DNA of 50,674 nucleotides from Alphaproteobacteria bacterium (GTDB lineage Bacteria; Pseudomonadota; Alphaproteobacteria; Elsterales; Elsteraceae): the NCBI GenBank assembly GCA_004292755.1, contig RDXE01000046.1, forward strand, positions 1-50,674. Reading direction: 5' to 3'. The notes beneath the pieces are model-generated. The model did not search any database. It saw only the letters and a list, made by a program, of their open reading frames with translations, and was not told the origin of the DNA. The position numbers and the translations under genes were made by a program. The stretch's first letter is position 1. Every line of letters starts with the position of its first letter. Below, one piece after another: positions 1 to 35,089 of the stretch.

Positions 1-96
1 ACGGGCTCCGCTCCACAGGCCATTGCTTCAACCGCGCCCATGCGCAACAACAACCGCCAGACTCTAATTCCCGTTGGATGAAAGATGGGGGTCAGG
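1..96. other. Left-edge non-coding junction segment
   Basis: Frame 1 of the plus strand is open from the window edge to a TGA at 79-81, so this could be the last 26 codons of a gene running in from the left, but nothing in that peptide is recognisable. Right after it, 86-104 reads GGGGGTCAGGTCACTTTGA, which ends at the stop of the AT-rich nuclease-ATPase gene. From memory, GGGGTCAGGTC-type strings recur in proteobacterial genomes near REP-associated transposases; no transposase is present here, so that link is only a suggestion. Confidence 0.3.
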
Positions 97-1560
97 TCAC
101 TTTGACTCATATATGCCAAAGATTTCTGACTTTGAGAATGACCATGCAGATTTATCAGTGATTGACACGATAACCAAGGCATGTTGGGCTGACTTCTTAA
201 AAGCCTGTGCTGCTTGGAAGATTTTCTGTTGTGATTCCGAGTCCATTTCATCGATGTTGTCAATGATCAAAATGGGCAGTTTCTTCCAATTCTTGACAAG
301 GAAAGCGCACAATTTTTTGAGGTACTCCTCTGGATCTTTTTCGATTTTTTCGTTCATCCACGCGCCGAACTCGATTTTAAATTGAGTTCTATCTGAGTCG
401 TAAAGATGCTTTTTTGTCCCTTCAGAAAGTCTCTTATAGTCAGAGAAAAATATGCCCTGTAAATCATTCCAACTTGGGTAACCACTATCAAACATCTCAC
501 TGTGAACTTTTTCTATCAATCTCCTGATATACCAGGATATTGCCTCAACCGCATTTCCAGAAAAGTCACGCATATCCACATTAGCAACAACACATCGCTC
601 TCTAGTTTCTTTTTGCAAAGTCCTTCTAAAAAATCTATCTAGGAATGTTGTCTTACCTGCGCCAGTGGGCCCAATAATAAACACAGTTTGCCCCTCTGTA
701 GCATGAAATACCCTCGTCACCAAACTGGATAGGTTGTCGTCTAGGCGTCCAAAATCGCGATCAACATTGCCAAGTATCTTCGATGTCATCTTCTCAAGAG
801 TGAAGTCAGCAACCCGACTCTCTCTACTCTCTACAAAACAGTTTATCAAAAGCTCTGGATCGTCACTACCCTGCATCGTGCTAAAATAAACATCAAAAAC
901 TCTGTCTAGATCGGCTGCAAGAGCACTTTTCTGATGGACTGATCGGTCAACATCAGTCAACGCGGTATACTCAGGCAATGGCTCCACAGCACGATTATTG
1001 TGAACCCTATCAAAGGAAAGAGCATAAATCTTCTTTTTCACAGAGTTTATGTGTAGGAGTTCGTAAAATACCTGCCAGTCGAAAATAACGGCGTTCGATG
1101 TTTGAAAGACAAATGATTCTATTTCTCTCCAATTTTTTCCTGGTACGAAGGGTTTTCCAATGATCCAACATTCGCCGTCAGTCAGCACATAAAGTGGAAT
1201 GCCCTCATCAAGAGCATAATTTCTCACTTGGTTGAGTCCGGAAAAACAGTCTCTGAGGGCTGTCCCGCCATTCTTGAATGTCTTAACTTTATTTTTCTCT
1301 ACACTGTTTACCGAAAGCAAGCCTTTTTTCTTTGCCTCTAAAACAATCTTACAAGATTCTCCATCATGTAGAATATAATCAGAATAGCCACTTTCATGTT
1401 TTTTTTCGGTAGTGAGACTAGACAGAGGCCAATCAAGCGATTCTTGAATCACACGTTGAATAATCTGCAGCTTTGTATCCTCTTCTGAATGAATTTGCGC
1501 TTTTATGGTGTTGGCTTCTCCAACTATCGCCTTAAATGCAGGAAGTGCAGATTCGCTCAT
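97..1560 (-). CDS. Restriction-nuclease-like domain fused to P-loop ATPase; candidate defence protein, probably truncated
   Basis: 487 aa. Residues about 20-180 resemble the N-terminal nuclease domain of type I restriction R subunits (HSDR_N): an acidic Glu-Glu-Asp start of the first helix, then Asp61 followed by Glu75-Ala-Lys77, a plausible PD-(D/E)XK site. Residues 270-487 form a P-loop ATPase of STAND/KAP style with Walker A GPTGAGKT (297-304) and Walker B LPILIIDNIDEMD with Asp434. The protein ends only about 45 residues after Walker B, before the helical and repeat regions such ATPases usually carry, so the C-terminus is probably lost. The gene is strongly AT-rich and uses A/T-ending codons unlike every neighbour, which indicates horizontal transfer. 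It stands alone with no methylase, specificity subunit or integrase in view. A nuclease plus NTPase architecture suggests anti-phage defence, but that is inference. Confidence 0.8.
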   Translation of the reverse strand: MSESALPAFKAIVGEANTIKAQIHSEEDTKLQIIQRVIQESLDWPLSSLTTEKKHESGYSDYILHDGESCKIVLEAKKKGLLSVNSVEKNKVKTFKNGGTALRDCFSGLNQVRNYALDEGIPLYVLTDGECWIIGKPFVPGKNWREIESFVFQTSNAVIFDWQVFYELLHINSVKKKIYALSFDRVHNNRAVEPLPEYTALTDVDRSVHQKSALAADLDRVFDVYFSTMQGSDDPELLINCFVESRESRVADFTLEKMTSKILGNVDRDFGRLDDNLSSLVTRVFHATEGQTVFIIGPTGAGKTTFLDRFFRRTLQKETRERCVVANVDMRDFSGNAVEAISWYIRRLIEKVHSEMFDSGYPSWNDLQGIFFSDYKRLSEGTKKHLYDSDRTQFKIEFGAWMNEKIEKDPEEYLKKLCAFLVKNWKKLPILIIDNIDEMDSESQQKIFQAAQAFKKSAQHALVIVSITDKSAWSFSKSEIFGIYESK

Positions 1561-1657
1561 GGCTGGTATTCCCCAACTTCAAGTCGCAAAAGATTTGGTT
1601 CTGGGTCGGCGGGTCGCTTCTGTATTCATTTTACGCTCTGATGAACTTCTATCTTTT

Positions 1658-2374
1658 CTACCGCCGCCCCAACGCTTCCTTAGCAGCAGCCAGTTCCTCG
1701 TCGTCGATGCGCACAGGCGTGCGGTCGGCGGCGACGAGCGTGGAGAGGGTGGCGGACAGGGCCAGCAGGTCGAGGTCGTCAGCCGTGACGACACCTTCGG
1801 TGCTGGTGTCGCGCAGGCCCACTTCAGCATAGCGGCGGCTGGCGCCAGCGCGGGCATCCAGGCGAATGGCGCGCACGTCGAGGATATCAATCGGCTCGGT
1901 GGTGCCCGCGCGGCGCACGCGGATGGCCCGCCCGGTCAGGCTTTCAATCAGGCGCAGGCAGGAGCGGGAGAGCGGCAGCGCCACCTCGCCGCGCAAAAAG
2001 CCCTGCCAAATCGCCGTCGGCTCCAACAAGCGCTGGGCGCGGCGGCGCGCGCGGCGGTTGAAGGGGTTGAGGCGACCGGTGGGTAGCACCGGGATCAAGG
2101 CAGCGCCCACCACGATCACCAGGGTCAAGACAATCGCGAGATGAGCACTGGTTGCCAGGGCGACCACCAGCCCGAGGCAGGAGATCGCCCAGACCACCAG
2201 TGCCGCCACCCGCACGCGGTGTGGCGTGACGGCACTCTCGACCAGACGACGGTCAGGCGTTTGGCGATACAATCCGGTTGCCACCAAAGCGCGTCGCGCT
2301 TCCCGCGAGGCGAGCACCCCGGCGAGAGGGTCGGTCTGGGTGGGCGTGCCGTGATCGGTATCGTCGCGTTGCAT
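1658..2374 (-). CDS. Hypothetical two-TM membrane protein
   Basis: 238 aa of unknown function. A hydrophilic N-terminus of about 55 residues is followed by two adjacent membrane segments (roughly residues 56-105, VWAISCLGLVVALA and AIVLTLVIVVGAALIPVL). An Arg-rich stretch (FNRRARRRAQRLL) then marks the cytoplasmic side, ahead of a soluble C-terminal half of about 120 residues. I chose the ATG at 2374 because AAGGAG lies nine bases upstream. An in-frame GTG at 2395 would add seven residues but has no such site. The gene follows the DLH/SnoaL fusion gene on the same strand after 87 bases. The GC content returns to the chromosomal level here, so it marks the right border of the AT-rich island. 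No family recognised. Confidence 0.75.
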   Translation of the reverse strand: MQRDDTDHGTPTQTDPLAGVLASREARRALVATGLYRQTPDRRLVESAVTPHRVRVAALVVWAISCLGLVVALATSAHLAIVLTLVIVVGAALIPVLPTGRLNPFNRRARRRAQRLLEPTAIWQGFLRGEVALPLSRSCLRLIESLTGRAIRVRRAGTTEPIDILDVRAIRLDARAGASRRYAEVGLRDTSTEGVVTADDLDLLALSATLSTLVAADRTPVRIDDEELAAAKEALGRR

Positions 2375-2461
2375 CGACGCTGTCTCCTTGAACACCTGAG
2401 AGTATCAAGCCTTGCCCCGCGTCGCATTGAAAACCTGCGACTGATCCGGAGGGGAGGGGGG

Positions 2462-10113: not shown

Positions 10114-11706
10114 CTACCGCGCCAACCACACCGCGCCAAGGTCTTGGTTGAGCAGGTGGCTGGGCGTGAAGTCCCACCCTCGCACCGAAGCGGCCATCGG
10201 GACGATGCGCTCAAACCAGAACAACGGCACCATGTAGGCCTGATTGATCAAGTGGGCCTCCATCTGGCGCAGGGTGACGCGACGCTTGGCGCGGTCCAAC
10301 TCGCCGGACTGGGCGTCGAACAGCCGGTCCAACTCGCGATCCGTGAAGCGCGCGGAATTGAGCGGCGGCGGTGAGCGGTCCATCGAGATGTACTTCACCC
10401 ATTGCAGGTTCGGCTCATCGGCAAATTCGGTCGAGAAGTCGATGATGGCATCGAAGTTGCCGGAACTCATCGCGGAGAAATAGGCTGCCGTTTCCAGGTT
10501 GGTCTGCTCCACTGTCACGCCGATCTGGCGCCACTGGTCGATCAGAAACTGTGCGGCGGTTGGGTATGGCGGCAGCGTGCGGGAGCCCAGGACAAAGCGC
10601 AGGTTGCTCTGCCCAGCCTCGGTCAAGAGGCGCCGGGCCTCGGCGCGGTTGCGCTGCATGTCGCGACCCATCAGCGGCAGCGCCTGCAGTTCTTCGTTGG
10701 TGGCGCTCAAGTCAAAGCCGGGTCGCAGCAGGCCGCCGGGATAGCGGATTTGAGAAATCCGTGACAGCGGCTGTGCCGCACCCCAGCGGTCAATCGCGAG
10801 CGCCAGCGCTTGACGCACGCGCACGTCGTTGAACGGCGCCTTCTCGGTGTTGAACGACAAGATGAAGCCGGACAACCAGGGGCCTTCAGCAAACTGGATG
10901 CGATCGCCGAGGGCCTGGCGCAGCCGGTCGCGCTCGGCTGGAGCAATGCCGCGGAATTCCGCATCCACCTGACCACCTTGCAGGGCATTCAGCATGGCTG
11001 AGCCGGTCAACAGGATGTTGCGGAAGCCATCAAGATAGGGCCGCCCCTCGCGGAAATAGCCCTCAAACCGCTTGCCAACCCATTCGGAGCCCGGCGTGCG
11101 GCTGACGAACTCGAACGGACCGGACCCCAGAATGCGCTTTTCGGGATAGCGCGGATCGGCGGCCAGAGCCGCGGCGGAGAAGATGCAGTTGTAGGGGCTC
11201 GCCAGCTTGGTCAGGAAGGATGGGTCTGGCGCGCGCAGGCGAAACACCACGGTTTCGGCATCCGGCGCGTCGATCGCGGTCACGCCAGCAAAATGCTCCC
11301 GCCGGGGGGAGTTGACGCCCTGCGGCGGGGTCTTGATCCGCTCGTAACTGGCTTTCACATCGGCTGCCGTCAGCGGGCTGCCATCGTGGAAGCGGACCGG
11401 TTGATGCAGGCGAAAGGTGTAGCTCAAGCCATCGGCAGAGGCTGTCCAGTCCCGTGCCAGATCACCCTCAATGCTGGGATAGTTTTTGGCATCAAAGCGC
11501 ACCAGGAACGAATAGTGCGGTGCCAAGTGATGGATGACGGTGAACGTATTGGCGGCGTGGCAATCGGTGGTCGGCGGTTCGGAGCCAACGGCGACCCGCA
11601 GCACGCCACCGCGGGTTGGCGTTTGCGCCAGGGCAGCGCTGGCAAGGCCAAATCCCAACACACCCACCGCCGCCCAGGCTGCGGCCCTCATGGTCCTGCT
11701 CGTCAT
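10114..11706 (-). CDS. ABC transporter substrate-binding protein, peptide/nickel family 5
   Basis: 530 aa. The signal peptide (MTSRTMRAAAWAAVGVLGFGLASAALAQ) is clear, and the mature protein begins TPTRGGVLRVAVGSEPPTTD, typical of DppA/OppA-like family 5 receptors. Further signatures are YSFLVRFDAKNYPSIEGDLARDWTAS, YTFRLHQPVRFHDGSPLTAADV, LGSGPFEFVSR and the late QMEAHLINQAYMVPLFWFERI. The ATG at 11706 follows GGGAGGAA; a longer open frame upstream is without support. No DppB, DppC, DppD or DppF genes lie in the window, so the receptor is an orphan and must serve a permease encoded elsewhere. The ligand, whether peptide, glutathione, sugar or opine, cannot be told. Confidence 0.93.
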   Translation of the reverse strand: MTSRTMRAAAWAAVGVLGFGLASAALAQTPTRGGVLRVAVGSEPPTTDCHAANTFTVIHHLAPHYSFLVRFDAKNYPSIEGDLARDWTASADGLSYTFRLHQPVRFHDGSPLTAADVKASYERIKTPPQGVNSPRREHFAGVTAIDAPDAETVVFRLRAPDPSFLTKLASPYNCIFSAAALAADPRYPEKRILGSGPFEFVSRTPGSEWVGKRFEGYFREGRPYLDGFRNILLTGSAMLNALQGGQVDAEFRGIAPAERDRLRQALGDRIQFAEGPWLSGFILSFNTEKAPFNDVRVRQALALAIDRWGAAQPLSRISQIRYPGGLLRPGFDLSATNEELQALPLMGRDMQRNRAEARRLLTEAGQSNLRFVLGSRTLPPYPTAAQFLIDQWRQIGVTVEQTNLETAAYFSAMSSGNFDAIIDFSTEFADEPNLQWVKYISMDRSPPPLNSARFTDRELDRLFDAQSGELDRAKRRVTLRQMEAHLINQAYMVPLFWFERIVPMAASVRGWDFTPSHLLNQDLGAVWLAR

Positions 11707-34688: not shown

Positions 34689-34744
34689 TGCACTGCTGCT
34701 CCCCACACTGACCGCCGCAGCGCGCGGGATTGTGTGCTGCGCCG

Positions 34745-35055
34745 ATCCAGTGGGGGGCTTCTGTTGCCCGGTGCCCCCCGAACCGCGTTCTTGAGCTAGT
34801 GCCCTAACACCCTAGCGGGTGGTTAGGCAGCGGCCTTCAGAGCGGGTGCAACGTTGTCGTTGGCACCTGTGAGTATGGCCCGGTAACGGCGGAACCATGC
34901 CGAGCGAAAACCATGCCTTTACCACGCACGTCGATCCTGTTTCGCCCCCATCGGATGCCCTGGTGGGCAGGAATGGTGGAGGCGCCGGGTACCGCCCCCG
35001 GGTCCGTAACGTCTATTCCACACAGCGTTTATCGCCATAGTCGGTTGCCCGACGT
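34745..35055 (-). ncRNA. ssrA: Permuted two-piece tmRNA
   Basis: On the minus strand the acceptor piece comes first and ends GGCGCCTCCACCA at 34974. Its T-arm stem CCGGG-GGCGGTA-CCCGG lies just before, and about 24 bases of spacer follow. The coding piece then starts at 34949 with GGGGGCGAAACAGGATCGACG, the standard tmRNA 5' sequence. The acceptor stem GGGGGCG/CGCCTCC pairs fully with one G-U. The tag frame at 34864-34823 reads ANDNVAPALKAAA followed by TAA. This order is the circular permutation typical of alphaproteobacteria, where the spacer is removed to give two RNA chains. tmRNA frees stalled ribosomes and tags the product for ClpXP. Outer ends are approximate, and a G-rich hairpin (34752-34779) marks the 3' end. 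sspB follows on the same strand. Confidence 0.95.
34752..34779 (-). terminator. Hairpin at the 3' end of ssrA
   Basis: GGGGGGC and GCCCCCC form a 7-bp stem around a 14-base loop, 44 bases after the end of the tag frame. It may end the tmRNA transcript or be its last internal helix. The sspB start lies 63 bases further on. Confidence 0.55.
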
Positions 35056-35060
35056 TGTTA

Positions 35061-35089
35061 GATATAGGGTGGAATCCGGCCCCCGCAAA
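35061..35089 (-). promoter_or_regulatory. Candidate ssrA promoter
   Basis: On the minus strand TTTGCG (35089-35084) and TATATC (35066-35061) are separated by 17 bases, a reasonable sigma-70 spacing. It would start the RNA near 35054, at the 5' edge of the acceptor piece. It lies between the TRAP permease stop (35107) and the RNA. The -10 is better than the -35. Confidence 0.45.

What the first reader, a model, noticed from the sequence alone, without database searches (positions are those of the whole stretch)
64..1660. AT-rich single-gene island coding a restriction-nuclease/ATPase fusion
The gene at 97-1560 differs sharply in base and codon use from all flanking genes, and its product joins a PD-(D/E)XK-like HSDR_N domain (Asp61, Glu75-x-Lys77) to a STAND/KAP-style P-loop ATPase with intact Walker A and B. 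Nuclease plus NTPase fusions of this layout are recurrent in phage defence. No methylase, specificity subunit or known partner is present, so if functional it would be a compact one-gene system that senses something other than unmodified DNA. This is the best candidate in the window for an undescribed system.
Basis: partly seen in the sequence, partly recalled or inferred. Interest (0 to 1): 0.62.

Follow-up and report, generated by a model that had tools for sequence, protein, structure and literature searches.

The report
Broken nuclease-ATPase-cold-shock defence-like gene
The AT-rich gene is real, but it is only the front half of a longer gene that a jumping DNA element has cut in two; intact relatives in plasmids, prophages and chromosomes of many bacteria join a DNA-cutting domain, an ATP-driven switch and (in one branch) two nucleic-acid-binding 'cold-shock' domains, and look like an unnamed one-gene anti-virus system.

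Summary
In detail: ORF 97-1560 (minus, 487 aa) is 41% GC in a 65% GC contig, with invariant PD-(D/E)XK residues (E52, D61, E75-A-K77, Q111, Y115) and an intact P-loop. But the 'compact one-gene system' is not intact here. Window 1-99 is the end of an IS3-like element (full copy G000:C28:1-1290), and the ORF's stop codon is the element's first three bases. Beyond the element, in frame and equally AT-rich (C28:1292-2155), lies the gene's 3' end with two cold-shock domains (CSDs); about 195 middle codons are absent. Intact relatives (57 genome loci, 6 viral contigs, several plasmids) read HSDR_N-like nuclease, ORC/Cdc6- or STAND-like NTPase, helical/winged region, then two, one or no CSDs. The gene is poorer in GC than its flanks in 61 of 62 loci, has no conserved partner, and is cargo among P2-like phage genes in three viral contigs. 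No PADLOC or NCBIfam model and no paper found names this architecture. Most likely it is a nucleic-acid-sensing nuclease defence family; here it is a pseudogene. Defence-island enrichment was inconclusive; function is untested.

The parts
1..99 (.). End of an IS3-like insertion element (terminal inverted repeat at 87-99: GGGGGTCAGGTCA); the full element is G000:C28:1-1290, outside the window
   Evidence: 100% identity to C28:1-99; matching inverted ends and two transposase frames
97..1560 (-). 5' remnant of the interrupted nuclease-NTPase-CSD gene; 97-99 is the stop codon supplied by the IS, own gene sequence is 100-1560
   Evidence: Aligns to positions 6-489 of the 965-position family profile; 31-45% identity to long relatives
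991..1560 (-). Residues 1-190: HSDR_N-like PD-(D/E)XK nuclease domain (E52, D61, E75-A-K77, Q111, Y115)
   Evidence: Invariant residues in 60 of 60; HSDR_N above cutoff in relatives; model
100..750 (-). Residues 271-487: P-loop NTPase core (Walker A 297-305, Walker B D434-N435-x-D437, conserved T468-D469), cut before its C-terminal lid region
   Evidence: AAA_22/AAA_16 matches; ORC/Cdc6-, CED-4-, RdrA-like fold
1561..1660 (.). Short region between the start of the gene and the GC-rich host gene at 1658-2395 (minus); upstream edge of the AT-rich island
   Evidence: Sequence and composition

Best explanation
The ORF is the 5' remnant of a horizontally spread single-gene family: HSDR_N-like PD-(D/E)XK nuclease, ORC/Cdc6-STAND-type NTPase, helical/winged region, and in this branch two C-terminal cold-shock domains. 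In this genome an IS3-like element interrupts it and about 195 codons are lost, so it is very probably inactive (shown at sequence level, confidence about 0.93). The intact family is most likely an anti-phage or anti-plasmid system: the CSDs bind single-stranded nucleic acid made during infection, the NTPase changes state or oligomerises, and the nuclease then cuts DNA, probably aborting the infection (inferred: about 0.6 for a defence role, about 0.35 for this order of events).
For: IS end and stop codon coincide. The 3' part with two CSDs lies across the IS, in frame and equally AT-rich. Nuclease and NTPase residues are invariant across phyla. GC of the gene is below its flanks in 61 of 62 loci. 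Carriage on plasmids and among P2-like phage genes in L122, L124 and L125. No recurrent partner gene. Patchy: no full-length relative in 60 related genomes. Precedent: CoCoNuTs combine NTPase, PD-(D/E)xK and CSDs (PMC11090510); P2-like phages carry anti-phage cargo (PMC9122126).
Against: Defence genes near the family are not clearly commoner than in an outer-ring control. More than half of the relatives sampled lack CSDs, so CSD sensing cannot be the mechanism of the whole family. Junction C52-IS-C28 is inferred across an assembly break, without a target duplication. No experiment.
Confidence: 0.6

Rival explanations
1. The intact family is a restriction enzyme in the ordinary sense: the NTPase and C-terminal domains recognise DNA by modification state or structure and the nuclease cuts it (type IV-like), without abortive signalling.
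For: The N-domain belongs to the HSDR_N type; one plasmid copy lies near type I restriction genes; NTPase resembles DNA-loading ORC/Cdc6 and TnsC proteins.
Against: No translocase helicase domain, and no methylase or specificity gene as a recurrent neighbour. CSDs generally bind RNA or ssDNA (PMC11090510), not duplex DNA.
Confidence: 0.2
2. The 487-aa product is a complete, working short form: a nuclease-ATPase without C-terminal sensor.
For: All catalytic and ATP-binding residues are intact, with no other stop or frameshift in 487 codons.
Against: The stop codon belongs to the IS; the end falls just before the conserved FFLPxP and lid/winged region present in all relatives; the 3' part with CSDs survives across the IS. 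None of the full-length relatives ends here.
Confidence: 0.05
3. The family serves the mobile elements that carry it (e.g. plasmid or prophage maintenance, exclusion of rivals, or nucleic-acid processing in replication) rather than host defence.
For: Copies on plasmids and in prophages; ORC/Cdc6- and TnsC-like NTPase.
Against: Many copies are chromosomal with no replication or transposition gene as a recurrent neighbour; integrases lie near only six loci. Exclusion of rivals would still be defence in effect.
Confidence: 0.15

Closest known systems
HsdR / type I restriction R subunit, N-terminal nuclease (Pfam HSDR_N PF04313, HSDR_N_2 PF13588)
   Same: Nuclease domain with the same motif order; 14 of 52 relatives match HSDR_N at E<=0.01
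   Different: No helicase motor, no HsdM/HsdS; coupled instead to an ORC/Cdc6-STAND-like NTPase and CSDs
Antiviral STAND proteins (Avs) with N-terminal nuclease
   Same: Single protein, N-terminal nuclease effector, central STAND-like NTPase (NB-ARC/CED-4-like fold); STAND-nuclease fusions are known cargo of P4-like satellites (PMC9122126)
   Different: No PADLOC Avs model matches; C-terminal CSDs instead of long repeats; NTPase nearest ORC/Cdc6
CoCoNuTs (type IV restriction, McrBC-related)
   Same: Combine an NTPase, PD-(D/E)xK nuclease and one or two CSDs; predicted to target RNA (PMC11090510)
   Different: Multi-gene, McrB-type GTPase, coiled coils; this family is one gene with a different NTPase
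RdrA of RADAR
   Same: NTPase fold similarity (Z 11.8)
   Different: RADAR needs the deaminase RdrB and its ATPase has no HSDR_N nuclease; no such partner recurs here
Retron Se72 effector (CSD protein, NCBIfam NF038236)
   Same: The single CSD of the planctomycete form is nearest this model (E=1.1e-6)
   Different: Below that model's cutoff (28.4 against 82 bits); no reverse transcriptase or retron RNA was looked for or seen

Membership tests
PD-(D/E)XK nuclease, HSDR_N type | Catalytic D...ExK (and QxxxY) in an alpha-beta-beta-beta-alpha-beta fold | tested here: met
   D61, E75-A-K77, Q111, Y115 invariant in 60 of 60; predicted order of elements fits; HSDR_N above cutoff in relatives L068 and P0003. 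The window protein itself only reaches E=0.046
PD-(D/E)XK nuclease, HSDR_N type | Fold match of the isolated N-domain to a solved nuclease | tested here: inconclusive
   The NTPase filled the fold-search lists; sequence profile of the N-domain gives HsdR 3h1t only at E=0.38 though in register
STAND / ORC-Cdc6 type P-loop NTPase | Walker A and B with an AAA+/STAND-type core | tested here: met
   Invariant Walker A/B; ORC/Cdc6 Z 13.9, CED-4 Z 11.5, ZAR1 Z 11.1. STAND versus ORC/Cdc6 is not decided
KAP NTPase | Match to the KAP_NTPase profile | tested here: not met
   Below cutoff in the window protein (17.9 against 20 bits); 1 of 52 relatives matches at E<=0.01
Type I restriction-modification | HsdR helicase motor plus HsdM and HsdS | tested here: not met
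   No helicase domain above cutoff; no HsdM/HsdS as recurrent neighbours
Avs (antiviral STAND) | Match to Avs models; long C-terminal sensor repeats | tested here: not met
   No Avs model among PADLOC matches of the window protein or five relatives; C-terminus holds CSDs
CoCoNuT | McrB-type GTPase CnuB with McrC-type CnuC and coiled coils | tested here: not met
   No McrB/McrC domain in the Pfam results; single gene
Cold-shock-domain protein (full-length gene) | Pfam CSD above cutoff | tested here: met
   22 of 52 relatives match CSD; the C28 part of this gene scores exactly 27.0 bits, at the cutoff
Anti-phage defence gene | Protects cells against phage | not testable with these tools
   Needs cloning and phage challenge
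Anti-phage defence gene | Defence genes enriched around the family's copies | tested here: inconclusive
   Nearest genes against an outer-ring control: 41 and 158 matching PADLOC models per about 146 genes against 39; the tool does not give per-gene counts

The most novel reading that the evidence does not exclude
The intact two-CSD family is an undescribed single-gene immune receptor in which C-terminal cold-shock domains sense viral single-stranded nucleic acid and gate, through an ORC/Cdc6-like ATPase, an HSDR_N nuclease, with no methylase or partner.
Probability: 0.35. Interest if true: 0.7.

Novelty: new variant of a known kind. Interest (0 to 1): 0.48.

Why it matters
The copy in the window is a broken relic, but it leads to a widespread family (Pseudomonadota, Cyanobacteriota, Planctomycetota, Acidobacteriota, Bacteroidota and others) with a defined architecture that none of the libraries searched names as a system. 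Cold-shock domains on an ATP-gated nuclease suggest direct sensing of single-stranded nucleic acid, which one cloned gene could test. It also shows that an apparently intact ORF at a contig end can be an IS-truncated gene.

Tried and rejected
Searching with the window protein alone found nothing in genome or viral contigs; an alignment of full-length relatives was needed. KAP label: rejected. Conserved partner gene: none. Empty site in the same-genus genome: the flanking genes lie on different short contigs, so adjacency of C52 and C28 could not be shown. Target-site duplication: none at C52/C28 or C52/C25; read as deletion or recombination between IS copies. Missing middle piece in the own genome: not found; a short segment between two IS copies, dropped from the assembly, is not excluded. 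hhalign of the N-domain profile against one HsdR sequence: weak but in motif register. Literature searches found no paper naming this architecture; the library holds open-licence papers only. Named phage records: no match. Fold searches: the P-loop filled the PDB lists, so residues 1-190 and the CSDs were hardly tested there; the viral library gave a phage CspD at low rank.

Full report
1. What is there. ORF 97-1560 (minus strand) encodes 487 aa. Its GC is 40.7% against 65.4% for the rest of the contig; no other segment of that length falls below 59.8%. The window is the entire contig C52 of a 95-contig, 4.21-Mb draft genome.

2. The gene is cut. Window 1-99 is identical to C28:1-99 on the opposite strand. 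C28:1-1290 has the layout of a complete IS3-like element: overlapping transposase frames and 13-bp perfect ends TGACCTGACCCCC...GGGGGTCAGGTCA; the IS3 label is from the layout, not from a family search. The ORF's last sense codon ends at window position 100, and the TGA stop is the element's first three bases. Contig C25 begins with another 99-bp copy of the right end, so there are at least two copies.

3. What it was. tblastn in plasmids finds eight records where one place covers at least 80% of the query; the seven clearest are 31-45% identical. Intact relatives among them are 957-981 aa, one is 823 aa. Pfam gives HSDR_N or HSDR_N_2, AAA_22/AAA_16 and cold-shock domains, CSD E down to 7e-18. 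The C28 flank to the right of the IS is 42.5% GC up to 2155, reads in frame from base 1292, and aligns over 284 columns to the C-terminus of the Phaeobacter relative, both CSDs included (26% identity, E=1e-28). A profile of full-length relatives finds two pieces of this gene in the genome, positions 6-489 on C52 and 684-949 on C28, plus an ordinary cold-shock gene on C18. About 195 codons are therefore missing. No target duplication is seen. The likeliest history is IS insertion followed by deletion or by recombination between copies.

4. Active sites. In 60 aligned sequences E52, D61, E75-A-K77, Q111 and Y115 are invariant, and so are G297, G300, G302-K303, T305, D434-N435, D437, D469 and W473. 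AlphaFold2 on the window protein (mean pLDDT 82) gives a confident N-domain of PD-(D/E)XK order; its NTPase resembles ORC/Cdc6 (Z 13.9, 2.7 A over 154 residues), TnsC, RdrA, CED-4 and ZAR1. The full-length Kiloniella model (pLDDT 84) adds a helical/winged region and two small beta barrels at about 831-903 and 910-979.

5. Family. 57 genome loci and six viral-contig loci were found. Three forms exist: two CSDs (about 950-990 aa), one CSD (planctomycetes, about 890 aa; the CSD of L112 is nearest the retron Se72 effector model), and none (mostly 800-835 aa, many with an Arg/Lys-rich tail). The tree puts the window copy in a group with 16 two-CSD members (100/100) and beside Aurantimonas (99/97).

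6. Context. GC of the gene is below its flanks in 61 of 62 loci (sign test 3e-17). No neighbour recurs apart from shared surroundings in close cyanobacteria, common enzymes, and integrases near six loci. In L122 the gene lies between a P2-like tail terminator/completion pair and a baseplate gene; L124 holds a gpA-like nickase and an integrase; in L125 it is near a tail-fibre gene. P2-like phages are known to carry anti-phage cargo, though the published hotspots lie at other positions (PMC9122126). Defence genes occur near several copies, but an outer-ring control was not clearly lower. None of 60 related genomes has a full-length relative. Other copies are broken too: an Acinetobacter one is split by ISAba1, a Rhizobium one is frameshifted.

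7. Mechanism. Shown by sequence: domain order, invariant catalytic and ATP-binding residues, CSDs in part of the family, mobility, disruption here. Inferred: that CSDs bind single-stranded nucleic acid of the invader, that the NTPase acts as a switch, and that the nuclease then cuts DNA and aborts infection. CoCoNuTs are a precedent for NTPase, PD-(D/E)xK and CSDs in one system (PMC11090510). CSD-less members must sense by other means.

8. Verdict. Observation correct but incomplete; 'one-gene system' fits the family, not this copy; the family is not named in any library searched; a defence role is likely, not proven.

Noticed in passing
window 34732-35070: Permuted tmRNA gene (tag ANDNVAPALKAAA), a layout known from alphaproteobacteria.
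   Followed up: no
G000:C25:1-99 and C28:1192-1290: A second right end of the same IS leads into ordinary GC-rich sequence on C25; the matching left flank is missing from the assembly.
   Followed up: partly
L039:9971-14093 (Acinetobacter sp. SH20PTE14 plasmid): Another copy of the family gene is interrupted by ISAba1, with both halves still 84-87% identical to an intact relative: a second, independent IS disruption.
   Followed up: yes
L041:9944-12873 (Rhizobium sp. CIAT894 plasmid): Copy whose reading frame changes near 10600, annotated only in part as a hypothetical protein.
   Followed up: partly
L112:5467-8133 (Gemmata MAG): One-CSD form whose C-terminal CSD is nearest the retron Se72 effector model.
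   Followed up: no
L100, L105, L108 and similar loci: CSD-less members often end in an Arg/Lys-rich tail (up to 27% R+K in the last 60 residues), perhaps a substitute for nucleic-acid binding by CSDs.
   Followed up: no
plasmid hits H9-H24: A more distant set (21-28% identity over about 60-85% of the window protein) on Klebsiella, Rhizobium and other plasmids, one annotated as a predicted type IV restriction endonuclease.
   Followed up: no
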